34,606 bases of DNA, taken from Bacillota bacterium. Lineage in GTDB: Bacteria; Bacillota; SHA-98; Ch115; JABLXJ01. Every line of letters begins with the position of its first letter. Position 1 is the first letter of the stretch. Below are positions 8,256 through 31,535 of this stretch, piece by piece. The stretch covers positions 1 to 34,606 of the forward strand of contig DUMQ01000065.1 in assembly GCA_012839815.1 (NCBI GenBank), written 5' to 3'. A program made the translations under genes and the position numbers. The notes below the pieces were generated by a model. The model was not told where the DNA came from and did no database searches. It saw only the letters and a list, made by a program, of their open reading frames with translations.

Positions 8256-11200
8256 TCAATCTCCAAACCACCCCCGGTCCTCCCGTATCTCCCGTGCGCG
8301 CTCCTTGCCGAGGAGGATCCTGGCCAGGCCAAAGAAATGCCTTGCCATAGCATCCCGGTCGTCCAGGTCGCTTGCCGGAATCTCGCGGACTTCGTAACCT
8401 CGCGCGCGCAATTCGTCGCGGATAGCCCGGTCTCTCGCCGCAGTCGCGGGGTTCCCGTGGATGTGCTCACTGAGGCCGTCAAGATACACGCATATTCCTG
8501 GATCATCGTCATCATCGCCCGGGAAGAAGCAATCCGGCGTAGTTGATCCAAGCGGCTTCCCGAGCTGGATCTGGTGCTGCCACTGGGGCTCCGGGAATCC
8601 CGCACGCCGCAGCATCTGGCGCAACTTTTCCTCGGCCTCGTTCACAGGCATGGTACTCCCTTTGGGCGCCTGGTTAGGGAGCCTGGGCGGGATATCATGG
8701 AGAAATCCCAGAGCCGTCCCCCAGGTCTTGAAACGCTCAAGGGCGATGTGGCGGTCAAGGTGTTTATGGTAGAATGCGTTGCGGAAAGTTTGTAAGCAGT
8801 CTATGCAAGAATGCTGGCAGGCCGAAGGGCACTTTTCTACTACTTCAGTCGCGGCCCCTACAACCTCCCCCCAGCGTTCGCACGCCTGCTCGAGAAGTCC
8901 TGAACCTCCAGGCATGGGATCATAAAGAATCCCGTCGACTTCATCCTGGCCCGGGTGTCCGATCACGAGAATCTCAAGGTCATCGCGCTCCATCTCCAGC
9001 ACATGGCTCATCCCGGTGCGAAGAGCCTCGAGCACCGAATAGGCCTCCTTCCTGTCAGGAAGGCCTGGCAAGCATAGGGCGTCAGCGATAATATCTGCAA
9101 AGAACCCGACAGGTTCAACCGGCTGCCCATAACGCTCCTGCTGATTGTTTGAAAACTCCTCCAGTTCTCGGTCAGACGCCAGAGGTGAGCGACTCTGGCC
9201 ACTAACAAGGCAAAGCGGGTATCCAAGCTCACCGGAGGCAACCTTTGGCGCCGCGCCGACATTAACAAGTCTCATATGGACGCCGCGCCTTAGGGTTACA
9301 TCACGTCCTCCCCAGGAAAAGCGCTTGCCCGGGCCATGCCTTCCCGTCTCGTAACCATAGACGGCAACAGGGAGCTGAAACCGATATTCTTCCTCGTCGC
9401 TGATGTGAGATACATGGGCAAGCTCAACGTCACAGACGGGAACAGCCTTGAGCGCCACCTGTCCGAGCACAGAGACGGCCCCAGGCATGGCACTTCCGAC
9501 TTCTATGACTGATTCATGTCCTGTATCCACCTGAAAGAGCACGGGCTGCACCGGCTCCAGGTGAAAATACCTGGCGACGAATCGGTGGCCATTGGCATAG
9601 ATCAAATTACCGGGTACGTATTCCCTCAAAGCTATCGCCAGGGGGCGTGGCAGGTCAAAATCCGCATTCCCCTCAGCATACCTCGGCATCATCGCCGTTC
9701 CGACAATAGAACCCACTTCCAATCCATAGCCGGGGAGAAAACCTTCCGCGGCAAGCACGGAATAGGTACTCGTGTCATCGTATCCTTCAGCCTCGCGGCG
9801 CCGGCGATTATGAATCCCCTTGAGTTTCTTTATTAAGCGATCACATCGCCCATAAAGCGCATCTTCATCAGGGTCGAGAGTCCCCTTTTGCCGTCGTACC
9901 TGATCAAGGCGTTCCATCTGACCACGTGCCCAATCAAGGCGTTTTCTGAGGGCGCGAAGCACATCGGCGAGCCTTTCGGGCATGGCCAAGACCATATTGC
10001 CAAGCGTCTCTTCCGTAACAACTTCCGTATCCTCCTTAGGCCAACTCTCTCTGAATATGGTCAGGATATGCTGCACCAGTATTTCCGCATGTTTCGCTAT
10101 CACCGTGTGAAGCGGGCCTACATCAAGTACTTCGCCGCGAACATGTCCGTTATCATCAAAAAGGTAACTCCGGATGCGTGGCGGGAAAACCGTTCGCAGC
10201 ACCTCCGCTATTTCCTCGCGATCACTTTCATTGAGGGGGCTGCCATCCCGACAGAGCTGGTGAAGATGTGTGATCACCGCAGCATGCACATGCTTTGCAA
10301 TCATGAATTCATTCCGGAGATTAAACCTGGGCGGCTCGACCAGGCCTTCAAGGAGCTTAAGGGGCTCGGCAAAATAGGCACGGTCATGGTCCACCGCACG
10401 AGCGTAAGTGATATTTACCGCAAGGCGATGCTGCCGGCCGGCACGCCCGACTCGCTGCCAGTAATTCGATGGGAGAGGCGGGACGTTACGCATGAGCACA
10501 GTATCCAACGACCCTATATTAATCCCAAGTTCGAGCGTCGGCGTACAGACCAGTGTATTCACTGTTTCACCTTCGCTCTTAAATAGGCTCTCAAGGCGCT
10601 CACGTTCGCGGTCAGGCACTTGAGCCGAATGCTCTGCCGGACGTACCATTGCAAACCTTTGATCAAGGGCCGTAAGGTCATAGTTGTCCGGGTCAGGAGG
10701 TTCGAAAGTGAGTGTGCCGTCGCAATGAAAGGCAAGACACCGGTTACCAGGAGTCGGCCGTACCTGTGCGCGACGGCACTTCTGACATCGCCAGAGACCT
10801 TGGTTAGGCGTAATTCGCAGGATATCCGCATCGATCTGTCGCACCCCTGCGCAATGGGGTAGTGCATTACCTTTTGAACCTATAAGCGTGACCGGCACAA
10901 GGATCTCAAGATCCTCAGCTAGAAACCCCCAGAGTCCTTCCAGGAATTCCACTATCTCATCTCTTGGTACACCCCAGGCGCGCGCCGCCTGGCGAACGAG
11001 AGTATCTCCGGCCTGGCTGAGCCATTGGGCTACGCGTTTGGAATCGTCATCCAGCGAGCGTGAAAGTTTAAGACCTTTAGGAATCCCTGGAAATAGAGGC
11101 AGGTAACCCCGCTGAACTTCCCGGTCCCCCTCCGACCAGAAACGGGAAAAAATCCTGCCGTCGCGATCAAAAAGGACCATCTGGCGGCGGTAAAGATCAA

Positions 11201-13649
11201 GAATGGCTCCAATGCCTTCGGTAAGAAGAACTGGATCCAGGTTGAGCCGGCTGGCCCACTCTCTGATGAAAGCATGCTCGGGCGTAAGGCCGCGATATTC
11301 GATTTTTATCTTACCCCAAGGCTCAAGACCTACCTGTTGTCTTATACCGGTCGCAATCTCCCTCAAGACCTGGATGCGGAGAAAATACCTGCGTTCTTCC
11401 GCGTGCCTTACCCCTTCCGCCTCTTTTCGTGCTACGCGCCATACCTCGGGGATAAGGCTGCGGGAGAGGTCGTCATCGGCATCAAGCCGTTCGTCCATGT
11501 AGGCGACCAGATCTCCTATGGAGATTGAACCCCTTTCTATATACTCGGCCATAAGGCTCCGAAGCCTGAAACGGCGGGCATGATCCCTCATCCAGCCAGC
11601 CTGAAACGCGGCATCCTGGCGATTATCAGCGAACACAAGAAGGCGACGCCGGTCTGAATAGTGAATCATGTTCTGAGCGAGGACATGGACATCGGAAACG
11701 TTTATAGCGCGAACCGGGCGGGCAGGCTCGCGGTAACCAGCCCCTCTGGGACGGCCCCGGGATCTGCAGGCAAGGCATGAAGTGAGGTACCCTGGATACT
11801 TCTCATCATGCTCGACAGCAAAAAGGCGAACAAGAGACGCCTCGCGCCCGCAGGCATCGCACCTATCAAGGGATTGCGGGTGAAGAGCTCCGCAGTAACG
11901 GCAAAAGAAAACCTCATGCGTGCGAGCAGGCTCCTCTTCCTCGTCATCCGCGAACGCAAGGTGATCTAGAAGCACCACCCTGACCCCCCCTTGTTCGGGG
12001 TCGAGAGCAGGCCATACCCTGCGACCGCCTATCGCATCACCCCCACCGAGGCCGCGTGCGGTTACAGTCAGATCCTTTACATGATGTACAAAATAGTGCT
12101 GGCCGCAAGTATTACAGGTCAGGACGGGCAGGCGAAAGAGGCTATCCTTTCCCTGGACGGCGATCTGGTCCTCGGCCGAGAGCCAGAGACACGGGCCTGT
12201 GCCACCTCCGGGAAAAGTCACCACCGCTCCGCTGACGCCCCGGACGAATACATGAACTACAGGACGCAGGAGCGGGCGGCCTCCTTTCATTGAAGCTGCG
12301 CCAAGGGCAAGCCATACCAGGACCTCCTCCTCGGGCACGGGGCGGCCGATGCGATCCTCGAGTTCTTTCACCAGGTCACCGAGCGCCCGCGGACGGGACA
12401 GGATTTGCGAGAGTTGGTAGCAAAGCTCATTCCGGGCCATAAGGTCATAAAGGCCTTCTTGCCAGTGAACAGGGTCGAGCCGCGTGCCGGTCATGGCCTG
12501 GACTACGGGTCGGATCATACTACCGGCCCGCTCGCCTGCATCTAAAGCCTCCAGGATAGTCTGCAGGTGAACCGCCGGATCCCCTGGGAGCGCAGGCGGG
12601 AGCTCCCTTACAGGCGCCCATTCATCAGGCTCATATTCTTCTCCCACCAGGACCACATCACTTTCCGGCATACCGAAAAACCGCGCTGCAAATGCCTGAG
12701 CACCTTCAGTGCCATGCCTGGGATCTGCCAGCGTCGCGGAGGTGGCGATACATACTGTATCTTTTGCGCCTTTTCCACAGAATGCCCGGAACCTACGGAT
12801 AAGGCATGCAGTCTCTGCGCCGATTGCCCCACCGTAGGTGTGGGCCTCATCGAAAACGAGGAAATCAAATTGCGCATTATCAAAAAGCTCTATGTCTATC
12901 TGCCGTGTCAGAAGGAATTCCAGTTGTTTGACATTGGTGAGAAGGATCCTGGGTTGCTTCCCGGGAGTCCGCATCTCCTCTCGAGAGACGCGTTCCTCAG
13001 GAGGATGAATGGCGGTCTCGCGACGTTCTTCTCTAGCTTCTGCAAGAGCAGCCAGATAATCAGCGCGCGAGGAGCCTGCCGGAAGGCGAGTGCCACTCAC
13101 TTCAGCAGCACTCTCAGGTGTCTTGCCCACATACATCCCGAATGGAATTCCGGTTCCCGCCAGTATCTCGCGTAGCCGTTCGAGCTGGTCTTCGGCCAGG
13201 GCATTCATTGGGTAAACAATGACAGCCACGATGCCGGAAGGGGCCCCCTGGTCCCGTAATTCCAAGCAACGGCTGATAATGGGGTAGAGGAAACACTCTG
13301 TCTTGCCAGACCCGGTCCCGGTAGAGATCAGCGTTGTCTTGCCAGCGCGGATTGCACGGATTGCCCTCTCCTGGTGTCCATAAAGGCGTTTATAAGGGAT
13401 CAGGTTTTGCATGAAAGGATGGAAGATCCCCTCGTCTATGAGGGTTCTCACCTCCGCTCCGGCCCGAAATGAGCGTGAAAGGCTGATGTAAGGCCCCTTC
13501 ATGAGAGGGGTTTGGCGCGTTTTCTCAAGCGACAGGAGGTCCCGCAGCTGCGCATGGAGAGCCGGGTCAGCAAAGGCATAAGCTGTCACCTGATATCTGA
13601 GAAAATCCCCTACGACTTTTTCAGTGAAGTTAATGGGGTTAATGGCCAT
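8256..13649 (-). CDS. Giant DEAD/DEAH helicase with DUF1998 and C-terminal Vsr-like nuclease
   Basis: 1797 residues. The helicase core has Walker A STGTGSGKTE (about residue 108), FDEAH (about 266), ATSAT (about 305), and motif VI WQRVGRAGR (about 1065), with a long insert holding paired-cysteine knuckles (CNTCGQ; CRYCG...CDACG; CQKCRRAQ). Near residue 1616 is the cysteine cluster of DUF1998 (CPSACQHSCIDCL...YHKHLDR). The last 140 residues look like a Vsr/DUF559-type nuclease: TTPDCFF, YLDGLSEHIHG, RDRAIRDELRARGYEV. DISARM has a helicase (DrmA) and a DUF1998 protein (DrmB) encoded by adjacent genes; here both are in one chain, and its length is close to the sum of the two. Druantia DruE is the other close parallel in size and layout. 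The ATG at 13649 has AAGGAAGGT upstream. It is the last gene of the operon and converges on the truncated vapC. Confidence 0.85.
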   Translation of the reverse strand: MAINPINFTEKVVGDFLRYQVTAYAFADPALHAQLRDLLSLEKTRQTPLMKGPYISLSRSFRAGAEVRTLIDEGIFHPFMQNLIPYKRLYGHQERAIRAIRAGKTTLISTGTGSGKTECFLYPIISRCLELRDQGAPSGIVAVIVYPMNALAEDQLERLREILAGTGIPFGMYVGKTPESAAEVSGTRLPAGSSRADYLAALAEAREERRETAIHPPEERVSREEMRTPGKQPRILLTNVKQLEFLLTRQIDIELFDNAQFDFLVFDEAHTYGGAIGAETACLIRRFRAFCGKGAKDTVCIATSATLADPRHGTEGAQAFAARFFGMPESDVVLVGEEYEPDEWAPVRELPPALPGDPAVHLQTILEALDAGERAGSMIRPVVQAMTGTRLDPVHWQEGLYDLMARNELCYQLSQILSRPRALGDLVKELEDRIGRPVPEEEVLVWLALGAASMKGGRPLLRPVVHVFVRGVSGAVVTFPGGGTGPCLWLSAEDQIAVQGKDSLFRLPVLTCNTCGQHYFVHHVKDLTVTARGLGGGDAIGGRRVWPALDPEQGGVRVVLLDHLAFADDEEEEPARTHEVFFCRYCGALHPQSLDRCDACGREASLVRLFAVEHDEKYPGYLTSCLACRSRGRPRGAGYREPARPVRAINVSDVHVLAQNMIHYSDRRRLLVFADNRQDAAFQAGWMRDHARRFRLRSLMAEYIERGSISIGDLVAYMDERLDADDDLSRSLIPEVWRVARKEAEGVRHAEERRYFLRIQVLREIATGIRQQVGLEPWGKIKIEYRGLTPEHAFIREWASRLNLDPVLLTEGIGAILDLYRRQMVLFDRDGRIFSRFWSEGDREVQRGYLPLFPGIPKGLKLSRSLDDDSKRVAQWLSQAGDTLVRQAARAWGVPRDEIVEFLEGLWGFLAEDLEILVPVTLIGSKGNALPHCAGVRQIDADILRITPNQGLWRCQKCRRAQVRPTPGNRCLAFHCDGTLTFEPPDPDNYDLTALDQRFAMVRPAEHSAQVPDRERERLESLFKSEGETVNTLVCTPTLELGINIGSLDTVLMRNVPPLPSNYWQRVGRAGRQHRLAVNITYARAVDHDRAYFAEPLKLLEGLVEPPRFNLRNEFMIAKHVHAAVITHLHQLCRDGSPLNESDREEIAEVLRTVFPPRIRSYLFDDNGHVRGEVLDVGPLHTVIAKHAEILVQHILTIFRESWPKEDTEVVTEETLGNMVLAMPERLADVLRALRKRLDWARGQMERLDQVRRQKGTLDPDEDALYGRCDRLIKKLKGIHNRRRREAEGYDDTSTYSVLAAEGFLPGYGLEVGSIVGTAMMPRYAEGNADFDLPRPLAIALREYVPGNLIYANGHRFVARYFHLEPVQPVLFQVDTGHESVIEVGSAMPGAVSVLGQVALKAVPVCDVELAHVSHISDEEEYRFQLPVAVYGYETGRHGPGKRFSWGGRDVTLRRGVHMRLVNVGAAPKVASGELGYPLCLVSGQSRSPLASDRELEEFSNNQQERYGQPVEPVGFFADIIADALCLPGLPDRKEAYSVLEALRTGMSHVLEMERDDLEILVIGHPGQDEVDGILYDPMPGGSGLLEQACERWGEVVGAATEVVEKCPSACQHSCIDCLQTFRNAFYHKHLDRHIALERFKTWGTALGFLHDIPPRLPNQAPKGSTMPVNEAEEKLRQMLRRAGFPEPQWQHQIQLGKPLGSTTPDCFFPGDDDDDPGICVYLDGLSEHIHGNPATAARDRAIRDELRARGYEVREIPASDLDDRDAMARHFFGLARILLGKERAREIREDRGWFGD

Positions 13650-13749
13650 CTCATATCAACCTTCCTTCAACCCAACCGCATATCGTTCCGGCCACGTGTC
13701 CTTGATCGTTCTAGCCGCATATCCTTGCTGGAAATCTCTTGCCTCCACA

Positions 13750-16700
13750 TCATCGCCGGCGCCTTCTTTTGGGCTTGGGATATATTACATCTTCTCCGAA
13801 GAGGTTCTTCTCCCCGGACGGGAATAGCGCTAACTGAGTGCCAGGTAGTCTCCTGGCATCGGTATCCGGCGATTCGGCTACCTGCATGAGCCCTGGCGTC
13901 TCGCCGGAGAATTGAGGGTAGATGGCGGTTCCATGGACCCCTCTGATACCTTGGTCTGTGCTGGACCACTCTGCAGTTAGCCCGGCCATAAGAGTCCTGA
14001 ATCTCTCCTCGCCCAGTAAGTTGCGGGCATGGAGTTCACACTCTTTCCATGACTCTTCTGGCGAGCCTTCCAGCTGCCACCGCAGGAAACGATCGCCCAT
14101 GCGTTCGCGGACAGGCTGGGCCCGCTTTGCCCGTTCATCATGCCCAAGGCCAAGGTCGGCCAGCCTCAGAGTCTCGGGGAGCATCCAGCCCTCCCCGTTG
14201 TTCAGAGCGCAGAACGCCTCAATACCCTTGTCCCGGTCACCTTCGGATTTGATGATGCTCTTCAAGTCCTGGAAAGCTGCAAGAGTAAGGACCGTATGCC
14301 GGAGCTCTGGGTCCCTCTCTTTATCCACACGCCAGAACCCCTTTGGGTCAAGATTTCGCGTGAAGGCATCGTCACGCAGCTGCTCCGCAGGATAGTCACA
14401 ATCGCGCAGTATCCAGGCCAGGTCATCCCAGTCCAGCCCATAGAGCTCAGCCACAATAGCATCGAGGATACACCGGAGGCGCAGGCGCTCGTGGGGGGTG
14501 AGGGCCCAGAGGCGGTGCCAGGGTATCGAGTCTCTGCGCACGGTGGATGAATGCTTGTGTGCTAATATCATCCAGGAAGGCGCAAACAACCGATGGACCC
14601 ATGATAGGCTTGCAGCATAAAGGATAGCTGGTCTTCGCGCATGCCAGTTTTGCGGGGATTGAACTGGTGTCTCAGCAATAACGAAGCAATTGAGATTGAT
14701 GCCGCCCAAACGCGCACGAAGTGCGTAATCGTAGCAAAAGCTGTTTAGGATCGCCGGTAGGCAGGTTTTCTCCGAAAGTCCGACTACTGGTCGGAGTATT
14801 GGTATCGCATTTCCACACGGAACACTTTGAAGCAAAGTGCAGAACATAGAACGTGTATTAGTAGCGGAACCGACACCCATGAAGCCAACCTTCAGATAAA
14901 AAGGCCAGTTATTCCCTACCGATTCTTCAATAAATGAAACAAAATCTGAGGCAGACATAATGTATTGGGGTTCTATTACCTTCGTCTCCCACGGTATCTC
15001 ACGCCACTTCGCCCCGCGGCCCTTCCCGCTGACCCAGCCTTTCTGGCTGAAGTCGAATTGGCCGATCATGCGGCCTTCATATAGAGGCAGGGCAATATCC
15101 TCCACCTCATCCTCATGGATCCATGCAGTGCCGTCCTGCGAGAGTATGACGCCGGGCTCCATCTCCCACCGAGGGCCAGCAGGACGGCCTTCATGCCAGC
15201 GGCCCTTGAGCCAGCGGCCATATTCATCCGGCCGGTAGCCGCGTTCCTCCCACCAGGGTCGTGGGTGGAAAAGGTGCGAGTCGTTGGTCATATCAAATTC
15301 CCTGGTATACTGTATCTGCCACCCCTCCGATGAATCGTCGCCGAGGAGCACCGAATTTGCATAAATCTTCTCCAGGATCTGGAGGTCGTACTTATCCCGG
15401 ATCTCCAGGATGGCCCTGGTACCGGGGCTGAATCGCTCAACCTGTTCCCTCGCATACGGCGTGACGTAACGTTCCCCGCTTTCCCAATCCGCCAGGTCCC
15501 GGCGCATAAAGGCAGCATGAATCGCCTTCGTCTCTCCTCCTTTTTGGACGACAATGGGACAGAACTTGAAGCTTCTGTGAATATCGAAAATCCCCTCCCG
15601 GTTCTCAAACCCAAAGAGCCAACGCCAGCGGCACCGGGCGAGGAAAAGCTTACGCAAGGCCGTCGTTCCTTTGTCTGTGTAAATTCCGGAAGGAACGATG
15701 AGCCCCATCTGGCCTCCCTCGGATAGGAGCGCATGGGCCTGTTCGAGGAACATCTTGTAGGTGTTGATATCTGCCGAGCCCTGGTGCCGGAAAGGATGTC
15801 GGGGATCTGTGTAACCTTTCCGACCCGCCCGGCGGGAAGTCCACCTGGAGTGCAAGGAGTCGCTACCCTTGCCCAGGCTGAACCTGTCACTATCTTCCGC
15901 GCCATCGCCAAATGGGAAACCCGCCCGCTTCACCCAGTTAGAAAGCGCCTTGAATCTTGCGCAGTAGGACAGCCAGGCGTGCTCGTCATCAGCGCTCCGA
16001 CTGAAATACTCCCCTTGCTTTTCTAAAGCTTCCTGTTTGCCGTAAGTCCGGTAAAGAGGGTCGATATTCGAGAAAAACTCTTTGGAATTCGGCTTTTGAA
16101 TATCCCACGGTGGATTGCCCACAATAGCGTCAAACCCGCTCCCAGGCGCCCTGAAGACATCGGGAAACTCGAGTTCCCAGTGGAAAAACCGGTATTCGCC
16201 GGCGAGCTCCCTGACAAGTGCCTGCGTTGCCTCGGGTGGATTCATGAAGTTTAGCGGGGTCGGCGCTTCCTCAAGGCGATCCGCCGGCCAGAACCAGATG
16301 GCGCACCAGGTGTCAAAGGCTTCTTTCAACCGCTGGAATGCAGGGTTTCTGAGGATCCTCTCACGATAAAAGGCAGCCCGCTCCTCTGACTCATGGACAC
16401 CGAGAGCATGTATTTCCTCAAGGGCTTTCATGGCTTCACTATGTAATTCCTCTGGAGCCTTGCCCAGGTCTGGAAATAGAAGTACAGATTGACCTGCTTC
16501 GGTCTCCAGCCAGTTCCTGAGCTCCGATTTGATCCTCTTATTGCGAAAAGCCCTGATTGCCTTTGTCCACCCTTCCTTCGGGAAATGCACACCATGCGAG
16601 TGGCTCTTATCCCCTCCCTCCCGTTCCCAGGCGAGGGCCGGATAGTCCCGGAAACGGTCAAACCAGCATCCTACCAGAGAATTCCCGACTTTTATCTTGT

Positions 16701-19197: not shown

Positions 19198-19202
19198 GCA
19201 CC

Positions 19203-22670: not shown

Positions 22671-22686
22671 ATTCCCTGACCTTGAA

Positions 22687-23871
22687 TCAAATCCACCCAA
22701 CTGGATTCCGCCTCCTATCTTCCTCCCACATCGCATAAACATCAATCTCGAGCGGAGGGCCAGGTGCAGCTCGCAAGAAATGATCGGCCTGCCTTTTCCC
22801 TCGTTTAGGAGAACCTGCAGCAACAACTCTATGAACCGCCCATCCTGTCTCAGCCAAAGACCTCTCCATAATCTCCAGAGGGTCTATTTTCCTGGAATTG
22901 ATGCAGCCAAACCTGATAGCCATTGTTGCCCCTGGAGTACATAGAGCTCCTACATTTTTCCAGGTTTCATGTAGCTCGTCGCAGAACTTTTCTGGGTTTG
23001 TGTGGCTCATCTGGCCATCAACTGAATAATCTACGACGGGCGGCCCGCCGAGGAACCAGTTTCTCACCCATTGGTCTGGGACGTAAGTCTTCATCCCGAA
23101 ATATGGCGGAGAAGTGATCACCCAGGAAAACCCGCGCACCTGCCCGTCAAAGAGCTGCCGGATACGGGCTATGATGCCGGGGTTCCTGCTATCCCCGGAT
23201 AGAATTTGACCCGGGACGGAGGGCAACGCTTCACCATAATATCTCTCAGCTCTTATACGTATCACTTCCAGGACGTCTACCTTTCTCGGCAATAACGAGT
23301 TCTCTCGCCAGAAACGCACACTGTATGCAGGCTTAGGCGCATATGTCCTGGGGGCCTGGTTGGAGAAATACGACGGGTATGACCTGCTCTGCGGGCCATG
23401 CAAAGCCCCCAGAATTATTGCTCTGAGGGCAATTCTTGCAGGAGACCGGCAGTCTGCGAGTAGTGCCTCCCGCAGACGACAGAGATCCTTCAAAACACTC
23501 TGGTGATAAGCCAGTTCCCAAAACTCGCCGCATGGGACATCCTCAGGTTCCGCCCGCTCATCGAGGGCTCGCCTCGCAGCATCCATTATTTCCTCAACAG
23601 ATGGGCTTACCAGCTTCGCCTGGGATAACGCCACGGCGACTGGGCTGCTATCTACCCCGATTGTCGGGAGTCCGAGGAGCCTTGCAGCGAAATTCGTAGT
23701 CCCACGGCCGCAAAAGGGGTCCAGCACCCACTCACCAGCTTGCGCGGCAGAACCTAGAATGCCGAGCGGAAAGTCGAGGGGGAACATAGTGAAATAGGGG
23801 CAAATCGCATTTAGGCGCGCTTCTGGCGCTCTGCTCCCGTTATTGAGAGGGTTTTGGACCGGCTTTGACAT
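22687..23871 (-). CDS. TSPPY-type DNA methyltransferase
   Basis: 394 residues from the ATG at 23871 (MSKPVQNP), chosen because AGGGGGAC lies just upstream; this start overlaps the HerA 3' end by 32 bases. Motif I is VLDPFCGRGTTNFAARLLG (about residue 51) and catalytic motif IV is ITSPPYFGMKTYV (about 254). DPFCGxGTT with TSPPY is typical of N4-cytosine or N6-adenine enzymes of the N6_N4_Mtase group, with motif I placed before motif IV, opposite to the usual beta order. Between them is a region of about 150 residues that may recognise the target. It is distinct in class from the giant enzyme in the same operon, so two marks may be laid. Cytosine N4 or adenine N6 cannot be decided from the motif alone. 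Confidence 0.85.
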   Translation of the reverse strand: MSKPVQNPLNNGSRAPEARLNAICPYFTMFPLDFPLGILGSAAQAGEWVLDPFCGRGTTNFAARLLGLPTIGVDSSPVAVALSQAKLVSPSVEEIMDAARRALDERAEPEDVPCGEFWELAYHQSVLKDLCRLREALLADCRSPARIALRAIILGALHGPQSRSYPSYFSNQAPRTYAPKPAYSVRFWRENSLLPRKVDVLEVIRIRAERYYGEALPSVPGQILSGDSRNPGIIARIRQLFDGQVRGFSWVITSPPYFGMKTYVPDQWVRNWFLGGPPVVDYSVDGQMSHTNPEKFCDELHETWKNVGALCTPGATMAIRFGCINSRKIDPLEIMERSLAETGWAVHRVVAAGSPKRGKRQADHFLRAAPGPPLEIDVYAMWEEDRRRNPVGWI

Positions 23872-25960
23872 ATGTTGTCCCCCTCTCATTCCTGAAAGAA
23901 TGCCACTCCTTATTCTGTTCACCGAATACCTCACTAAGAAGTCTGGGCACGAGATTATATGCAAGGCTATCCCGATCGTCAAGATTCTCCGGCAAAAAAC
24001 CGAACAGAACTGCCTTCAGCTGGCCCCATGCGACGCCGTCCTCACGCATTCGACTCACTAGGTCAGCTCTCTCCTCCCTGAATCGGTGTATAGCTTTTCG
24101 CTTATAAGTCTCGAGCACGTCGATGGGTTCCCCGCTTTCAGGGCCATCACCGGGTTCGTGTCCGGCCTTGGAGGTCAGCGAGACTGTTCTCTCCCCTGTT
24201 CCTTCCTCCGCTGGCCTCAGAGCCTCCTCGAACTCCCGCCGGAGCCTGCGCGCATATATATCAATGGCCGGGCGGTTGTACTTCGGATCCTGGGTACTTA
24301 CCTCTGATTCGAATGACAGGGCGCGTATCGAGACAGGATATGCGCGGCCACCCGCTGAACTCCAGAAAATCCCATGTCCGGGGATTGGCTCGTTCAAGAG
24401 TGAACTAAGCAGGTCCTCACTAAAGTGAGCGTTTGCCTTCCTCACATTTTGCAAATCCACTGCCGATAAGAGGTGGAAGACAAACCAATTATCTCCCTGG
24501 CTCAATATCTCTACTGGGATACTCCCGGGTTGCTGCGTGATCAGCACTGCGCCAAGGTCGTATTTTCTGCCCTCCTTAACCCAGGCGATGTATGGCTCAG
24601 CCCCAGACTTTTCTTCAATCAGGACAGACTGGGCTTCTTCCACAACAGCGATGGTGGGGATGGTCCTGGGTTCTGCGGCGGTAAATTCTTCCTGGTTTCT
24701 ATCAAATATCCGCCTGAGAATGAGTCCGCTCAAGACCAGCGCCTGCTCACCCCGCATCTGTGATACATCTACTATGCACAGCTTCCCCTCTGATAGAGCT
24801 TTGAGTAGCATATCCATCAGTTGGCTGCTCCTATCGTGCAGCATGCGCACAATCGCCGTCATGTTGCTGCGAGCTGCTATTGCTTCTGCCTCCTGCCTTG
24901 ATTCATCCAGGCTGAGCAGGCCGGCTATCTCTTCAAGAGCTGCATCATTTCCATGCCGGTCGATCAGGTCGACAAGAGCCGTCCAGCGATCCTGGCTCAA
25001 TCCACGTAGCTTTCTGACGTTTTGCTGATCCTGCTTCTCCGGAGATAAGGCAATCGAAATCACATCCGACGGGCGTAACCTCCGGATATCGAGTCTTACG
25101 CTTCCCGCCACAAAAGATTGGTAAAAGTCGCTGGGAGCCTTTCTAGAGGTGAAAACCACAAGCCTCTCCTGCAAGGCCGGGACATCGCATAAGCCAGGCC
25201 TGTTCTTGTCATCAGGCCAGAAATATTCCCCATCCCGGTCAAATAGGACCGTACCGACCGGGACTAACTTGCCGCCTCGCTTTTCCACCATAGGAGTTGT
25301 TGAGTATAGCTTGCTAAACAATAACTTATTGAGGTTGGATTTACCGAAGCCTGCCCGCGCAAAGATGAAGGTCCTTCTTGAGACAAGTTTCGTAACAGGG
25401 AATTTGACGAGCACCTCGGGTGTTAGAACCTGCATCCATGCTTCCGGGTTAAAGTCTGGGTGGTCTCCGGCAAAAACATATTCACCAAGAGAAAAATACC
25501 CTATTGGAACTCCTTCGTCATTATGGCCTGCAATTTCCCGGAGGACTTCATCAGAAGGGAAAGCAACAGGGCTCCCGACATGAGGCAGGCGCCTGTGTGA
25601 AGGGACGAATGTAAGTTTCTCGCCATTATGTCGCAGGACGCCCAGCACGCGAATATTTACCCTGTACTTAAGGTATTGTTCCCGGAGATCCTCCGGCACC
25701 GGGCGATCTTCCCGCACAGCCCGGATGTTGAATTCCTCACCGGCTCCGGTTGACAGGCGCCCTTCCGCAGATAACGAGCTTATCCTGCCCAGGACTGCCT
25801 CCTCCGGAGTCTCCAGTTGTACAAGCAGGAATTGCCCGTGCATGGGGAGGTTCTGGAACTCATTTCGATACGGAAGAACCAGATCAGCATGAAATTCCAG
25901 CCCGCCCTCAGTGAAACCACGGAATACCCCCACGATCTTATCCCTGGGGAAGAGAGTCAT
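23840..25960 (-). CDS. herA: HerA-family DNA-translocating ATPase
   Basis: About 706 residues from the ATG at 25960 (MTLFPRDKIVGVF), with a run of G residues about 11 bases upstream; a GTG at 25972 adds four residues. The N-terminal 170 residues look like a HAS beta-barrel (DKIVGVFRGF, PMHGQFLLVQL, EAVLGRISSL). Walker A is ARAGFGKSNLNKLL (about 200), Walker B VVEEAQSVL (about 440), and GAVLITQQPGSIP is the sensor region typical of HerA/FtsK-type pumps. The C-terminal 150 residues are unlike standard HerA and end in EVFGEQNKEWHSFRNERGTT. HerA forms a hexamer and drives NurA along DNA; its nuclease partner is directly upstream, 30 bases away. In archaea the pair works with Mre11-Rad50 in end resection; in bacteria it also occurs in antiviral loci such as this one. 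Confidence 0.88.
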   Translation of the reverse strand: MTLFPRDKIVGVFRGFTEGGLEFHADLVLPYRNEFQNLPMHGQFLLVQLETPEEAVLGRISSLSAEGRLSTGAGEEFNIRAVREDRPVPEDLREQYLKYRVNIRVLGVLRHNGEKLTFVPSHRRLPHVGSPVAFPSDEVLREIAGHNDEGVPIGYFSLGEYVFAGDHPDFNPEAWMQVLTPEVLVKFPVTKLVSRRTFIFARAGFGKSNLNKLLFSKLYSTTPMVEKRGGKLVPVGTVLFDRDGEYFWPDDKNRPGLCDVPALQERLVVFTSRKAPSDFYQSFVAGSVRLDIRRLRPSDVISIALSPEKQDQQNVRKLRGLSQDRWTALVDLIDRHGNDAALEEIAGLLSLDESRQEAEAIAARSNMTAIVRMLHDRSSQLMDMLLKALSEGKLCIVDVSQMRGEQALVLSGLILRRIFDRNQEEFTAAEPRTIPTIAVVEEAQSVLIEEKSGAEPYIAWVKEGRKYDLGAVLITQQPGSIPVEILSQGDNWFVFHLLSAVDLQNVRKANAHFSEDLLSSLLNEPIPGHGIFWSSAGGRAYPVSIRALSFESEVSTQDPKYNRPAIDIYARRLRREFEEALRPAEEGTGERTVSLTSKAGHEPGDGPESGEPIDVLETYKRKAIHRFREERADLVSRMREDGVAWGQLKAVLFGFLPENLDDRDSLAYNLVPRLLSEVFGEQNKEWHSFRNERGTTYVKAGPKPSQ

Positions 25961-25990
25961 AGCCAGAACCACCCCCTGATGCTCATAGCT

Positions 25991-27142
25991 TCACTCCCGG
26001 TATCGCCTGCTGGCGGGATCGACCTCACCCAGGCGGAATATATCCAGTTCCTGCGCTTCAGGCCCCAAGATATCGCGAATTCTCTCAAAAATCTGGTTCT
26101 GTAGTACGTCGAGATCGAAATCTACCAGAGCAGCATTCTCGTGAGCTTTCTGCAGGCACCGTGGATAGAAGGGCACGGGAAACCCATTCAGCGCATCGGC
26201 TAGCATGTAGCCTAGGATCTTCTGCGCCTCGCCGGTCTGACTTAAGAGAATATCGACAGGCCAGATCGGATCTGCCGGCCGATTCCCAAATTTGACGAAG
26301 AACATCTTCCCGGCAACAAACTTGTTAACCTCGGTGATATTCTCGAAACCTCGATCATCACCTCTGGCATATTCTGACCACACATATGCGTTTATCTCTA
26401 TCACACGTGGGACCTCCACATAACAGGGATAGTTGTTACGAAGCACTCCCTCGAGGCTCATCGCGAGGCGATAACGCGCCAGGACCTTGCTACGCTTCGC
26501 TACGCCCGCCACGTATACTCTCCGGTGGTTTTGCTTGAACTGGCGCTCGATTGCATCATCAAGACCTCTCTTATATCGTGCAAAGAGGTCTCTTGCAAAG
26601 ACTTTACTACGAAGGAGGCCGTCACGTATTATGAGCGTATCTGTGCCGAAGTCCTTCCCGCGGACCAGCTTAAATAAAATAGCCCATTCCACCAGTTCCC
26701 TGTACACCTGGATCCAGCTCGGGCTCTTTGGATGGCCGGCCTTATCCGGCCTTATCATGTGGCTTAGCTCTGGAAGTTCACTGACCCCGAGGAACTCCAT
26801 CATCTCGCCAAGAGGAGTTACAGGGTTCCCTGAGGTGTCAAACTGATGCCTTGATAATCCGAAAATGTCGGTTGTTGGAGTAATGACCTCCAGACAGTAT
26901 TCATTGTCGCTGGAGTCAACCACACGTATGAGTTGGATCAAAAAAGGGTCGAACTGGAGCTGATTGTTGCCACCATCAGCAGCAACAAGTGAAATCGAGG
27001 TAGCACTCCTCGGTTGAATCCGCCGAGTCTGCGCACGGAGCGGGCGAATATCATTGCGGAGTTGGTCAAGGACCCATCTGTCTGCTCTAATCAACTCCGT
27101 AAGCTCTACCTTAAGTTGCTCGTGGGTCCTGGGGTCAAACAT
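25991..27142 (-). CDS. nurA: NurA-domain nuclease
   Basis: 383 residues; ATG at 27142 preceded by GGAG. NurA features are seen in order: the first acidic motif LVAADGGNN (D56), the second acidic motif TLIIRDGLLRSKVF (Asp about residue 172), a Lys/Arg-rich helix pair around FARYKRGLDDAIERQFKQNH, and the late conserved strand FFVKFGNRP with DPIWPVDI. NurA is a metal-dependent RNase H-like nuclease that acts as a dimer on single- and double-stranded DNA when coupled to HerA, and HerA is the next gene. The N-terminal helix (1-45) is probably the HerA-contact part. No sign of damage. The stop lies 30 bases before the HerA start, so the pair is likely translated together. Confidence 0.85.
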   Translation of the reverse strand: MFDPRTHEQLKVELTELIRADRWVLDQLRNDIRPLRAQTRRIQPRSATSISLVAADGGNNQLQFDPFLIQLIRVVDSSDNEYCLEVITPTTDIFGLSRHQFDTSGNPVTPLGEMMEFLGVSELPELSHMIRPDKAGHPKSPSWIQVYRELVEWAILFKLVRGKDFGTDTLIIRDGLLRSKVFARDLFARYKRGLDDAIERQFKQNHRRVYVAGVAKRSKVLARYRLAMSLEGVLRNNYPCYVEVPRVIEINAYVWSEYARGDDRGFENITEVNKFVAGKMFFVKFGNRPADPIWPVDILLSQTGEAQKILGYMLADALNGFPVPFYPRCLQKAHENAALVDFDLDVLQNQIFERIRDILGPEAQELDIFRLGEVDPASRRYRE

Positions 27143-27235
27143 GAAACCATCTCCAGGTGCGCATAAAAATCCAGCTATTCGATATTCTTCTGCGATTATT
27201 TCCGACTTCCTGCCTTAATCTTAATCTAGCGGGGT

Positions 27236-27255
27236 GGTCACGGTGATTGGTGACC
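27236..27255. repeat. Short inverted repeat in the 134-base gap before nurA
   Basis: GGTCAC and GTGACC are separated by 8 bases. It could be an operator or weak hairpin between the first two genes and the rest of the operon. No T-run follows, so it is not a clear terminator. Confidence 0.35.
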
Positions 27256-27276
27256 GATCGCCGCCGGCAGACTATT

Positions 27277-27888
27277 TCATCTCAATAGTACCAGAGCACT
27301 AATAGCCAGTGCTGCAACGGAAACACCCAGGGTTACAAATACGAGGGTTCGCACTCCATTAACTGCCCCGAGTATCGAGGAATGCTCACCTGACTTCTCT
27401 TTCGACTCGCCGCTTAGTTGGGACCCTATTTCGGCAACAGCCTCACGGATCGCGGAATGTTCATTCGATGTCCTTTCCGCCTCGCCCCCCAACTCGGATT
27501 CCACCCTGGTTACGGCTTCAAGAATCCCTGAATGCTCACCTGAATTGACTTGCGACTGGCTTTTGAGTTGCGATCCTATCTCAGCTTCCATCTTGGCAAT
27601 GGCCGCGAGAACTATGGAAAACTGATTCGTTTGCTCCTTTTTCAAAGCATCCAGCCGCGATAGGATCTCGGGGCTGCCAATTGACTTCAGGAGCTCAATG
27701 GACTCATGTATGCCAACGGCCGTCCTTTCAGATGATGTAATGAATTGTAATAGTCGCTGTCGCACAGCCTCCAGCTCTCTTGTTGCCGTCTGGTAGGTTA
27801 GCACTTCCTTCTGTAGTGCAGTGAGGGTAGACACCAGCTCTTCGGCCCGTTTCTCGGCGTCAAGGAATCGTTCGGTCTCCTGGCTCAT
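27277..27888 (-). CDS. Coiled-coil protein with C-terminal membrane anchor
   Basis: 203 residues. The ATG overlaps the RecQ stop (ATGA), with a GGGGGAGAGGAAA ribosome site inside the RecQ gene. Residues 1-110 form a long helix rich in Gln, Glu and Leu (FLDAEKRAEELVSTLTALQ). Residues about 116-180 carry 25-residue repeats, each starting SGEHSGILEAV, SNEHSAIREAV or SGEHSSILGAV, an extended coiled-coil rod. The last 25 residues are one hydrophobic helix (VFVTLGVSVAALAISALVLL) with nothing behind it but Arg, so the protein is a tail-anchored rod facing the cytoplasm. It has no enzymatic motif. It may tether the system to the membrane, where phage DNA enters. I know of no named family for it. Confidence 0.75.
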   Translation of the reverse strand: MSQETERFLDAEKRAEELVSTLTALQKEVLTYQTATRELEAVRQRLLQFITSSERTAVGIHESIELLKSIGSPEILSRLDALKKEQTNQFSIVLAAIAKMEAEIGSQLKSQSQVNSGEHSGILEAVTRVESELGGEAERTSNEHSAIREAVAEIGSQLSGESKEKSGEHSSILGAVNGVRTLVFVTLGVSVAALAISALVLLR

Positions 27889-30800
27889 AATTTCCTCTCC
27901 CCCCTGTTAATCAATAATTGCTGAGATAGGTGAGTAAGCCTATCCAAGAGAAACCACGCTGGTTCGGTCCCCAGAGTCTGCGGTAAGTTACCTACGAGAA
28001 ATCTTGCAAGCCCGGGGTCATTAAACCTGAGAAGGATTTTGCTCTCAAGTTCGATGGCCAGCTCCATATCCTGCCTGGACAGCTGTTCTAGCCCCCATGA
28101 TATCAAGTCAAAGAGTTTTTGGCCCTTGGCTGAGTAGTTCTCGCTCGCCGAAAGAATGGATGCCATAAAGTTTTGCGCTGAGATCTCGCGGCTTGCGTCA
28201 CGGCACATGATTTCGGATAACGCCCGCAACATCAGCAGGCCGGGGTGATCAGGATAGGATTCGAGATAGCGGGACACCTGGCCTCTCAGTTCCGCAGCAT
28301 CGTTCAGCGAGACAATAGATTCGAATATCTCTTTTGCCTGTCCAATTCCTCCGCCAGGGTCCTCGACCATCGAATCGAGGCGCTCCGAATATTCCGTAGT
28401 TCCCAGGTATTTCACAATACGCTGGCGTACCCCGCTATCAGAAGGATCTACAGTGGCAGCCAGTAACATTTCATAGAGCGCCCTGCGCCTTCCCTTCTCA
28501 ATAACCTCATAGATAAAACGCAGAAGGAGCTCCGCCATTTTTAAGACAAAATCCTTATAGGGAAGATCTAGGAGTCTAGCAGCCTTTTCCAACTCTGTCT
28601 GGCGCCTTCCTTCACTGTAGCCTGCTACATATGCCCCATAGGAATCAATTATCGTACTCTTATCCGCTCCGGACAAATATACCGTAAATTCGTTAGAGGA
28701 GTAGTCTATGGTGTAGTCGGACACGACCCCAAGTATAACGAGCCGGTGAAGGGATCTTTCCGCCGTGTTCCTGTTAAGCGACGGAAATACCACCTTCCTG
28801 GTACTCCTGTGAGAAAAGTCGGACAAGGCCTCAAGGACGCTTAATATGTCCCTATATTCGGAGTCTATCCCCCGGAAGGAATTCGTATGAAGGAATAAGG
28901 CCCGTGTAATATCGTCATTTTCATCCCAGGATATGTCTCTCACCATCGCGGCTACTTCCTCAGCGTCAACATTTGGGTCGAGCAACCTCTTTGTCCGCTC
29001 GGGGTCGTCGTCTGAGACGATAATGCAGCAGTGTGCGACTCTCCTATCTCTTCCTGCTCTCCCTGCCTCCTGGTAGAACGCCTCTATAGAAGGCGGGAGA
29101 CAGTAATGTACTGTATATCGTATATTCGCCTTGTCTATCCCCATCCCGAAAGCCTTGGTAGAGACCAAAAGAGGAATCCTATTACGTTTGAAATCTCGTG
29201 CCGTAGCTTCCTTAGTCCGGTTCCAATTGTCAGCTGATGAATACTTGGGCTGTCTCCCTGAGTAGAAGGAGGTATTGATGCCAAGCTCGCTTCGCAGTCT
29301 ACCAGCTACTTCGACAACACCATACTGTCCGTCTACGTTTGGGCAGAACACCAGCCCAGAATAGGTTCCGTGCCCCCGAGTTTGATAGAATGAAGAGCCT
29401 GAGACACCAAATAAACCTGGCAACATCTGCCCCAGGTACCCCTTGAGCTTACTCATCTTTTCTTTCGATGGGGCCGACAGGATGTGAAACTTAAGCTCCG
29501 GCCTATCGAACGAATCTGGGGTAATAATTGCATCAATGTCTTGAATCTGGAGTTCGCGCCGGACATCCTTCAAAACAGATCTTGAGGCAGTGCCTGTCAG
29601 TGCCACCAAAGGCGGGATATGGCCGCCAGACTGGCAGTATTCCCGCGCTATCCTGGCGATGTTAAGATACGATGTGCGGAAATCGTGGCCCCACTCAGAT
29701 ACACAATGGGCCTCATCTATGACAACCAGGGCAACAGGCGTATGGACCGTCAGGGCCCGCAATGATTCTCTAAATTCCTGCATTTGAAATCGCTCGGGCG
29801 CAACGTATGTAAGCAGGTACTCCCCTTGCCCAAATAGCTCGATGATATCCGACCGTTCCTCGGCGTCAGATATCATGCTAGTTATCCCCATACAACGGTG
29901 AATCCCATAAGAGGAGAGGTTATCAAGCTGATCTTGAATTAGCGAAATGATAGGTTCAACGACTACCGATACGCCTGGCAAAAGTAGGGATGCTAGCTGG
30001 AAGATCAATGATTTACCCGAGCCCGTAGGTAGCAGCACTATAGTGTCTTTACCTTCGAGTGCCCTGACTATGGAGGCATATTGTCCATCCCAGAAATATG
30101 GTTTTCTAAAGATGTACTTCAGAAAATAGGAGAGCGTCTCCTCCGACGGGGGGGAGAGTCGTGCCGGTTCGGCGGGAAACGATTCACAGGCAATATCAAA
30201 AGGAACATAGATATCTTGAATATAGAAAGTGTTTACACTCCGGTACTGGTTCCGGGTGTACGCGATGTGAATGGCATTATATCGATCGCCCCTGGGTTCA
30301 CTAATGGAACAGACAGGTACGCCATCATTTATGTTGACCGAATAGAGGTTTGAAATCTTGCCTAAAAGCTCGACCAGATCTGCAACTGCTATCCTTAGGA
30401 TCTGGTCTGCCTCTTCCCTTGAATAGAGGCCAATACCATCCAGGTCAGCAGTAATGCTCCATGCCCCCGGATCAAGGAGGTTCAGGCAACCCATCTTAAT
30501 GGCCTGTAGCAGCGTGAGCTGGATCTGATGGCATATCTTAGTAGCATAAATGAAAAGCAAGGCACTGTCACGATTGGGTCCGCCGGACGAATTCCGGCAG
30601 GCAGGCTGCAGGATCCTTGTCAGCTCACCGAGTCCTTTTCCAGATAGGGTCTCACATTCGCACGCGGGGATTCTGATAACGCGAAAGCCGGCACGCGTAA
30701 GAATGGAGTCCCTTAGCTGATCCACCCCGGCGTGTATCTCATGTTGCTCTCCATCTATTTCGATTAGTATGGGATCTGGCAAGGATGGGTGGCTTATCAG

Positions 30801-31535
30801 GAAATCGGCCCTGCCATCAACAGGAGACTGAAGGCTCCGCGGCAGGAGACTACTCAGGCTCACCTGGGGCAGCACCCACTTTGCGAATGATGGGCCGAGA
30901 GTCAATGGTAGGAACCTATCGTAAAAGGCCCTTTCACTCGGGCTGTCAAACCAGGAAAAATCTATTTCCCTTTGAGGCGTCATTGAAAATATATCAGGTG
31001 AAATATGTACTGAATCCATTATACCGGGTTGGCCCAGCAGTAACCTGGAGAGGCTCTCTTCTACGAATGGGGAGCAAATGGTGATTCGCCCTCTTGTCAA
31101 TATCTTCTCTGCTACCGCGAGAATCTGGCGGGTGGTCGTGCTCAATTCACATGTCCGTTCGAAATCAGGGAAATCTAATCTCCATTGAGAAAACGCGCGC
31201 ATATTTGCTTCGGGAAGTTCAATGTCGGGGATTTCCTCCATAATGGGAAAAGGTACAGCTACAGACTCGAAAAAGCGCACCTGGCACCCTTCATACCTAC
31301 TTCGCGCAACGAGCCTGTGCGGAATGGAAACCCCGGAGCTTTGAAGATTTGCAACCTGTTCATTCTGGGCAGGGCTTATATCATTCCCGGCCCCTTCACC
31401 TACCGGGAAAGGCAAGGTACCCCTACACCCTGGATACCTGGAGCAACCATAGAATTTATCGCCCGCGTTCGGTCCCTTTCGCGCTGTCCTCAACACCATT
31501 GGAGAACCGCATACCGGGCACCTCGGTTCCGACAT
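27885..31535 (-). CDS. Zinc finger - Vsr/DUF559-like nuclease - RecQ helicase fusion
   Basis: 1216 residues, first gene of the operon; ATG preceded by GGAGGA at 9 bases. Residues 6-37 are a topoisomerase-type zinc finger (CPVC...FYGCSRYPGC; C6, C9, C31, C37). Residues about 200-310 form an endonuclease-like domain: VDGRADFLISHP, IEIDGEQHEIHAG (about 258), QLRDSILTRAGFRVIRIPA, the acid-DG-QH and RD-L-AGFRV pattern of Vsr/DUF559. The RecQ core follows, with LLPTGSGKSL (about 501), VIDEAHCVSEWGHDFR (about 607), ALTGTAS, FGMGIDKANIR and YQEAGRAGRD (about 825), that is RecQ-type DEAH, not DEAD or SNF2. The last 300 residues are helical and unknown; no HRDC is seen. RecQ enzymes unwind 3' to 5'. 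The fused nuclease suggests unwinding joined to strand cutting. Confidence 0.85.
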   Translation of the reverse strand: MSEPRCPVCGSPMVLRTARKGPNAGDKFYGCSRYPGCRGTLPFPVGEGAGNDISPAQNEQVANLQSSGVSIPHRLVARSRYEGCQVRFFESVAVPFPIMEEIPDIELPEANMRAFSQWRLDFPDFERTCELSTTTRQILAVAEKILTRGRITICSPFVEESLSRLLLGQPGIMDSVHISPDIFSMTPQREIDFSWFDSPSERAFYDRFLPLTLGPSFAKWVLPQVSLSSLLPRSLQSPVDGRADFLISHPSLPDPILIEIDGEQHEIHAGVDQLRDSILTRAGFRVIRIPACECETLSGKGLGELTRILQPACRNSSGGPNRDSALLFIYATKICHQIQLTLLQAIKMGCLNLLDPGAWSITADLDGIGLYSREEADQILRIAVADLVELLGKISNLYSVNINDGVPVCSISEPRGDRYNAIHIAYTRNQYRSVNTFYIQDIYVPFDIACESFPAEPARLSPPSEETLSYFLKYIFRKPYFWDGQYASIVRALEGKDTIVLLPTGSGKSLIFQLASLLLPGVSVVVEPIISLIQDQLDNLSSYGIHRCMGITSMISDAEERSDIIELFGQGEYLLTYVAPERFQMQEFRESLRALTVHTPVALVVIDEAHCVSEWGHDFRTSYLNIARIAREYCQSGGHIPPLVALTGTASRSVLKDVRRELQIQDIDAIITPDSFDRPELKFHILSAPSKEKMSKLKGYLGQMLPGLFGVSGSSFYQTRGHGTYSGLVFCPNVDGQYGVVEVAGRLRSELGINTSFYSGRQPKYSSADNWNRTKEATARDFKRNRIPLLVSTKAFGMGIDKANIRYTVHYCLPPSIEAFYQEAGRAGRDRRVAHCCIIVSDDDPERTKRLLDPNVDAEEVAAMVRDISWDENDDITRALFLHTNSFRGIDSEYRDILSVLEALSDFSHRSTRKVVFPSLNRNTAERSLHRLVILGVVSDYTIDYSSNEFTVYLSGADKSTIIDSYGAYVAGYSEGRRQTELEKAARLLDLPYKDFVLKMAELLLRFIYEVIEKGRRRALYEMLLAATVDPSDSGVRQRIVKYLGTTEYSERLDSMVEDPGGGIGQAKEIFESIVSLNDAAELRGQVSRYLESYPDHPGLLMLRALSEIMCRDASREISAQNFMASILSASENYSAKGQKLFDLISWGLEQLSRQDMELAIELESKILLRFNDPGLARFLVGNLPQTLGTEPAWFLLDRLTHLSQQLLINRGERKL

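What the first reader, a model, noticed from the sequence alone, without database searches (positions are those of the whole stretch)
8256..31535. Composite DISARM-related array with HerA-NurA, RecQ-nuclease and two methyltransferases
One co-directional operon of eight genes joins a class 1 DISARM-like trio (SNF2, PglX-like methyltransferase, helicase-DUF1998) to HerA-NurA, a second methyltransferase, a RecQ-nuclease fusion and a membrane-anchored rod. DISARM is known to need DrmA, DrmB and a methyltransferase, but this set does not match the textbook DISARM or Druantia gene lists. I recall that DISARM-related arrays with extra helicases have been reported, and cannot check whether this layout is among them. 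I see no DrmC-type phospholipase D gene.
Basis: partly seen in the sequence, partly recalled or inferred. Interest (0 to 1): 0.92.

Follow-up and report, generated by a model that had tools for sequence, protein, structure and literature searches.

The report
Three stacked phage-defence gene modules
Eight genes that look like one giant anti-virus system are three separate, independently recurring modules placed end to end on one strand; one of them is an uncommon hybrid of the known DISARM and ARMADA systems, and the other two are recurring helicase-nuclease modules that our searches did not find described as defence systems.

Summary
The eight co-directional genes are real, but they are not one conserved system. 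In 399 genomes of the phylum, relatives of the second methyltransferase, the RecQ protein and the DUF1998 helicase occur in 9, 3 and 3 genomes, and only the window's own genome has more than one of them. Each block recurs alone. (A) SNF2-PglX-helicase/DUF1998/Vsr nuclease: same three genes only in two genomes of the same class and, in broken form, on a Synechocystis plasmid. Its SNF2 passes the DISARM DrmD cut-off, which tested ARMADA SNF2s do not, while the helicase is one fused ARMADA/Druantia-type chain in place of DrmA+DrmB, with a Vsr-like nuclease in place of DrmC. It is a DISARM/ARMADA intermediate, close to published ARMADA type I. (B) NurA-HerA-methyltransferase: at least 51 of 80 loci over many phyla, none with RecQ. 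Nearest solved structures are TdpB and TdpA; same order as the Thermus ICETh1 transjugation operon. Most likely a translocase-nuclease restriction system marked by methylation. (C) RecQ-nuclease plus membrane coiled coil: a two-gene unit found alone in two genomes, and with other N-terminal domains on two plasmids. The eight-gene set is a defence stack; blocks A and B are the interesting parts.

The parts
8256..13649 (-). Module A, gene 3: YprA-family DEAD helicase with fused MZB/DUF1998 region and C-terminal Vsr/DUF559-like nuclease motif (1797 aa); DEAH at residue 267
   Evidence: Pfam DEAD, Helicase_C, MZB; PADLOC best DruE 352 bits, DrmA only 56 bits; TPDC...YLDG...RD motif conserved in G367 and G049; tree
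13750..19197 (-). Module A, gene 2: PglX/DrmMI/type IIG-like adenine methyltransferase (1815 aa), DPACGSG at 718, NPPW at 1028
   Evidence: Pfam Eco57I; PADLOC IIG PDLC03622 1541 bits, DrmMI 430 bits; motifs
19203..22670 (-). Module A, gene 1: SNF2/BrxHII/DrmD helicase; likely start ATG at 22670 (ORF open to 22826)
   Evidence: NCBIfam DISARM_DrmD 685 bits against cut-off 610; DDVGLGKT at 207 and DEAH at 322 of the long ORF
22687..23871 (-). Module B, gene 3: DNA methyltransferase, DPFCGRGTT then TSPPY (N4-cytosine-like); likely start ATG at 23871, overlapping HerA
   Evidence: Pfam N6_N4_Mtase; invariant FCGRGTT and TSPPY in all 17 aligned rows
23840..25960 (-). Module B, gene 2: HerA-family DNA translocase (AGFGKSN at 207, VVEEAQ at 443 of the long ORF); likely start ATG at 25960 (ORF opens GTG at 25972)
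   Evidence: Pfam DUF87; best PDB sequence match TdpA 6.6e-22; best fold match TdpA
25991..27142 (-). Module B, gene 1: NurA-family RNase H-fold nuclease (383 aa)
   Evidence: 31-row alignment with invariant D56, E152, D174, D297, H334; model pLDDT 86; Foldseek TdpB 3.5e-13, S. solfataricus NurA 1.8e-6
27277..27888 (-). Module C, gene 2: coiled-coil protein with C-terminal transmembrane segment (203 aa), overlaps RecQ stop by 4 bp
   Evidence: sequence; relatives directly after RecQ in four other records
27885..31535 (-). Module C, gene 1: zinc ribbon, DUF559/Vsr-like nuclease (EIDGxQH...D..RD), RecQ helicase (1216 aa)
   Evidence: Pfam DEAD, Helicase_C, Zn_ribbon_Top1, DUF559; recQ_fam above cut-off; alignment with four relatives
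31983..32897 (+). Divergent Mrr-type (type IV) restriction enzyme, neighbour of the stack
   Evidence: Pfam Mrr_cat and Mrr_N, PADLOC mREase_IV
33465..34583 (-). Tyrosine integrase near the contig end; possible mobile-element gene
   Evidence: Pfam Phage_integrase; 82% relative in a genome of the same order

Best explanation
The locus is a defence island in which three independently mobile anti-phage modules are stacked in one orientation. Module A (DrmD - PglX - fused helicase/DUF1998/Vsr) works like class 1 DISARM/ARMADA: the methyltransferase marks self DNA, the fused helicase loads on unmodified or exposed single-stranded phage DNA with help from the SNF2 motor, and its own C-terminal nuclease takes the place of DrmC. 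Module B (NurA - HerA - methyltransferase) works like the TdpAB restriction complex: a HerA hexamer pumps duplex DNA into a NurA dimer that cuts it, and the partner methyltransferase (probably N4-cytosine) marks host DNA so that the motor-nuclease spares it. Module C (nuclease-RecQ plus membrane coiled coil) is a two-gene helicase-nuclease held at the membrane that acts on incoming or unwound DNA. Shown here: domains, module boundaries, recurrence and fold relatives. Inferred: all activities, the self-marking roles and any co-transcription.
For: In 399 phylum genomes the markers of B, C and A occur in 9, 3 and 3 genomes, overlapping only in the window's own. Module B: 107 relatives of NurA in one genome scan; of the 80 kept loci 42 read NurA-HerA-MTase and 9 MTase-NurA-HerA, with no RecQ or coiled-coil hit in any. 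Module A alone in G367 and G049 at 67-76% identity, flanked by unrelated genes, and on a Synechocystis plasmid. Module C alone in G172 and G134; a RecQ then coiled-coil pair, with a different N-terminus on the E. coli one, on plasmids NC_015970 and NZ_OP242248. Both NurA and HerA have the two chains of TdpAB as best solved relatives. G+C steps from 0.57 (A) to 0.52-0.54 (B) to 0.50-0.52 (C) to 0.46 in the Mrr gene beside the stack. Genes next to module B elsewhere include type I methyltransferase, BrxC and DrmD.
Against: No activity is tested. DUF1998-helicase, PglX or DrmD-like genes lie near module B in three of 80 loci (L038, L043, L087), so A and B may cooperate at times. Short gaps permit one transcript. 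Thirteen of 80 loci have NurA-HerA with no methyltransferase found nearby, so the mark may come from elsewhere or the methyltransferase may be optional. The Thermus NurA-TdtA-methylase operon has a demonstrated role in DNA donation, not defence (PMC5365140). The HerA model is of moderate confidence (pLDDT 69.5). Module C rests on two genomes and two plasmids.
Confidence: 0.62

Rival explanations
1. The eight genes are one composite system: modules B and C were recruited as extra nucleases and a second self-mark for a DISARM/ARMADA core and are co-transcribed with it.
For: One strand, short gaps, 16 bp between the module B methyltransferase and SNF2; helicase/PglX/DrmD-like genes beside module B in three of 80 loci.
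Against: No second genome with the eight; each module is found alone; the three layouts near module B elsewhere differ in order and strand; closest relatives of module A lack B and C.
Confidence: 0.12
2. Module B is a DNA-donation (transjugation-like) machine rather than a restriction system, as for TdtA in Thermus, and the region is an integrative element.
For: Same order and types of genes (NurA, HerA-like, PF01555 methylase) as TTC1878-TTC1880 of ICETh1, where the HerA-like and NurA-like genes are needed for donation and the methylase has only minor effect; a tyrosine integrase lies 2 kb from the stack.
Confidence: 0.17
3. Modules B and C serve chromosome repair (HerA-NurA and RecQ end resection) and lie beside module A by chance.
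For: HerA-NurA and RecQ families act in repair in archaea, Deinococcus and many bacteria (established knowledge; papers listed).
Against: Sporadic presence, 9 and 3 of 399 genomes; linked methyltransferase; RecQ relatives on plasmids, one next to DprA on a plasmid with a site-specific integrase; HerA is far below the cut-off of repair HerA models.
Confidence: 0.08

Closest known systems
ARMADA type I (Bell et al. 2025, PMC12458937)
   Same: SNF2, PglX-like and YprA-like genes; YprA homolog with C-terminal Vsr-type nuclease; the order SNF2-PglX-YprA is reported for many archaea and cyanobacteria; no GajB-like gene
   Different: SNF2 is DrmD-like above cut-off while four ARMADA I SNF2s score 296-345 bits; the helicase forms its own clade with a Synechocystis plasmid, place against ARMADA I, II and Druantia unresolved
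DISARM class 1 (drmD-drmMI-drmA-drmB-drmC)
   Same: DrmD equivalog, PglX/DrmMI-like enzyme, gene order
   Different: No separate DrmA, DrmB or DrmC; one fused helicase-DUF1998-Vsr chain that matches DruE, not DrmA
Druantia (DruE)
   Same: Helicase-DUF1998 fusion is DruE-like by PADLOC
   Different: No other Druantia gene; nuclease is Vsr-like; methyltransferase and SNF2 present
TdpAB (PDB 8wet, 8wfd)
   Same: Best solved relative of both NurA and HerA
   Different: Partner modification enzyme here is a DNA methyltransferase; from memory, TdpAB goes with a phosphorothioate hypermodification enzyme TdpC. Sequence identity about 20%
Thermus ICETh1 nurA-tdtA-methylase operon (PMC5365140, PMC7767461)
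   Same: Gene types and order
   Different: HerA homolog longer here; no Tth111II-type gene directly upstream; role there is DNA donation
PsyrTA and DpdF RecQ-type defence helicases
   Same: RecQ core matches PADLOC DpdF and PsyrT models; a plasmid relative sits behind a DprA gene
   Different: N-terminal zinc ribbon and DUF559/Vsr nuclease here; membrane coiled-coil partner; no antitoxin-like gene

Membership tests
DISARM class 1 | SNF2 helicase DrmD | tested here: met
   NF038317 685 bits, cut-off 610
DISARM class 1 | DrmMI-type methyltransferase | tested here: inconclusive
   DrmMI 430 bits against 1547-1668 for two DISARM reference enzymes and 697 for an ARMADA I one
DISARM class 1 | separate DrmA helicase and DrmB DUF1998 protein | tested here: not met
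   one fused chain; DrmA 56 bits against DruE 352 bits; no other such ORF
DISARM class 1 | DrmC phospholipase D nuclease | tested here: not met
   no PLD hit in any of the ten proteins scanned; the literature calls DrmC non-essential
ARMADA type I | BrxHII-like helicase, PglX-like methyltransferase and YprA-like helicase in one operon | tested here: met
ARMADA type I | C-terminal Vsr-type nuclease on the YprA homolog | tested here: met
   motif in window, G367 and G049; Pfam gives no separate hit, so by motif only
ARMADA type I | YprA homolog inside the type I clade | tested here: inconclusive
   separate clade 100/100; joining with four type I rows not rejected, p-AU 0.31
ARMADA type II | GajB-like helicase with RelE-like domain after the YprA gene | tested here: not met
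   no such ORF after the helicase gene; a helicase gene sits there in the E. coli reference L139
TdpAB | HerA-like TdpA with NurA-like TdpB | tested here: met
   as fold relatives, not shown to be orthologs
TdpAB | phosphorothioate-based modification gene | tested here: not met
   partner is a PF01555 methyltransferase
Thermus transjugation (Tdt) operon | nurA - herA-like - N4/N6 methylase in this order | tested here: met
   window and 42 of 80 loci
Thermus transjugation (Tdt) operon | orthology of the HerA protein with TdtA and role in DNA donation | not testable with these tools
   TdtA sequence not held; function needs mating assays
PsyrTA | RecQ toxin with DprA-like antitoxin gene | tested here: not met
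   RecQ core matches, no DprA gene in window

The most novel reading that the evidence does not exclude
Module B is a widespread, unnamed restriction-modification type in which self and non-self are told apart not at a cleavage site by a restriction enzyme but by a HerA-NurA translocase-nuclease that is halted or not loaded by N4-cytosine methylation; and module A is a separate DISARM/ARMADA intermediate in which DrmA, DrmB and the nuclease are one chain behind a true DrmD.
Probability: 0.35. Interest if true: 0.72.

Novelty: new variant of a known kind. Interest (0 to 1): 0.52.

Why it matters
It prevents a false claim of an eight-gene system and replaces it with three testable units. Module A gives a living intermediate between DISARM and ARMADA with gene order kept and three functions fused, which bears on how these systems arose. 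Module B links an experimentally known DNA-donation operon of Thermus and a solved restriction complex to a gene trio seen across many phyla, so the open question of whether TdtA-like operons are export machines or restriction systems becomes directly testable.

Tried and rejected
The eight-gene unit (no second genome). Plasmid spread of module B: no NurA match in 72,556 plasmids. Empty-site comparison through flank genes: TPR and integrase relatives were too common or too diverged to place the insertion. att repeats, tRNA, Rfam: none. Promoter and terminator scans were at chance level. Paper searches for HerA-NurA defence and for TdpAB found nothing usable. Unrooted SNF2 and methyltransferase trees without ARMADA II cannot tell DISARM from ARMADA kinship by clade tests, so bit scores and the tree with ARMADA II (89/94 for window with DISARM DrmD and L038) are used instead, with long branches as a caution.

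Full report
Observation. The window is the whole of one contig (34606 bases) of a 2.8 Mb, 163-contig, 99.7% complete genome. Likely true starts are 25960 for HerA, 23871 for the second methyltransferase and 22670 for SNF2; with these the genes are packed with gaps from an overlap to 134 bp. Chance is not an issue: each large ORF matches curated families or, for NurA, a solved fold.

Do the eight belong together? In 399 genomes spread over the phylum, the module B methyltransferase has relatives in nine genomes, the RecQ protein in three and the DUF1998 helicase in three, the window's own genome counted each time, and the three lists share nothing else (E limits 1e-20, 1e-80 and 1e-100). A scan of 84,980 species genomes with a NurA alignment found 107 relatives; of the 80 kept loci 42 have NurA-HerA-methyltransferase in a row, 9 have methyltransferase-NurA-HerA, 9 have the methyltransferase apart or inverted, 13 have none found, and 7 are cut by a contig end. 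None has a RecQ or coiled-coil match, and in three of them (L038, L043, L087) helicase-DUF1998, PglX-like or DrmD-like genes lie near by, in differing layouts. The closest relatives of the SNF2-PglX-helicase trio, G367 and G049 at 67-76% identity, have that trio among unrelated genes. The RecQ-coiled coil pair stands alone in G172 and G134, and a RecQ followed by a coiled-coil protein is on a Rhodothermus and an E. coli plasmid. The G+C content steps down from module A to B to C to the flank. The array is therefore three stacked modules.

Module A. The SNF2 protein passes the NCBIfam DISARM DrmD cut-off, 685 against 610 bits, while SNF2s of four ARMADA I loci and one ARMADA II locus score 296-350. 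These reference loci were assigned to ARMADA I or II here by gene content and order, not by the authors' table. By BLAST the window SNF2 scores 231-288 bits with four DISARM DrmDs and 98-137 with the ARMADA proteins. The methyltransferase is distant from both. The helicase is one chain with helicase core, MZB/DUF1998 region and a Vsr/DUF559-like C-terminal motif, matches DruE rather than DrmA, and forms with G367, G049 and a Synechocystis plasmid helicase a clade of its own; joining it to ARMADA I is not rejected, p-AU 0.31. Class 1 DISARM reference loci read drmD-drmMI-drmA-drmB-drmC, so the window keeps that order with the last three functions in one gene. Bell et al. (PMC12458937) describe ARMADA type I with this order in many archaea and cyanobacteria, so module A is best called ARMADA type I-like with a DISARM-type front end. 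By analogy with DrmAB, which is activated by unmethylated DNA with a 5' overhang (PMC9142583), and with ARMADA II, which protects directly and non-abortively with all four genes needed (PMC12458937), module A should act on phage DNA with its own nuclease. This is inference.

Module B. NurA is confirmed by a model of pLDDT 86 whose best solved relatives are TdpB and S. solfataricus NurA, and an alignment profile finds TdpB alone in the PDB. HerA finds TdpA first by sequence and fold; its own model is of moderate confidence. The methyltransferase has invariant FCGRGTT and TSPPY motifs in that order; SPPY is typical of N4-cytosine enzymes (established knowledge). The same three gene types in the same order form part of the tdtA operon of Thermus ICETh1, where TdtA and the NurA-like protein are needed for DNA donation (PMC5365140) and the methylase matters little (PMC7767461). 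Genes beside module B elsewhere include BrxC, type I methyltransferases and DrmD, which favours defence, without a background control. The proposed mechanism is a DNA-pumping nuclease restrained by methylation of host DNA.

Module C. A zinc ribbon, a DUF559/Vsr-like nuclease and a RecQ core in one chain, followed by a coiled-coil protein with a C-terminal membrane segment. The E. coli plasmid relative has HAD- and phosphoribosyltransferase-like N-terminal sequence instead and a DprA gene upstream, recalling PsyrTA (the domain reading is by eye). A membrane-held helicase-nuclease acting on entering DNA is a guess from anatomy.

Limits. No function is tested. Public annotation of the window's species was not available. 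The supplement of Bell et al. and the TdtA sequence were not held. Statements on TdpAB function beyond the PDB titles are from memory.

Noticed in passing
31983-32897: Mrr-type IV restriction enzyme divergent from the stack; a 56% relative also lies about 10 kb from module B in genome G058.
   Followed up: partly
5976-7094: M48-type peptidase with zinc ribbons split over two ORFs, probably a broken gene.
   Followed up: no
419-2739: Protein with a restriction-endonuclease-like DCK motif but no Pfam hit, followed by a protein with two HIRAN domains.
   Followed up: no
573-608: Exact 18-bp tandem duplication inside the 419-1567 ORF.
   Followed up: no
27362-27585: Internal 74-nt repeat at 72% identity in the coiled-coil gene, a repeated rod segment.
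   Followed up: no
L123:4708-10852: E. coli plasmid pLAO18: DprA, long RecQ with HAD and phosphoribosyltransferase-like N-terminus, small coiled-coil membrane protein; looks like PsyrTA with a third gene.
   Followed up: partly
L043:1-14388: Acidobacteria contig with PglX, YprA helicase and then NurA-HerA-methyltransferase on one strand, order reversed against the window.
   Followed up: partly
L139:1-21414: E. coli plasmid with an ARMADA type II-like operon directly after a DEAD/DEAH helicase that resembles Druantia III DruE.
   Followed up: no
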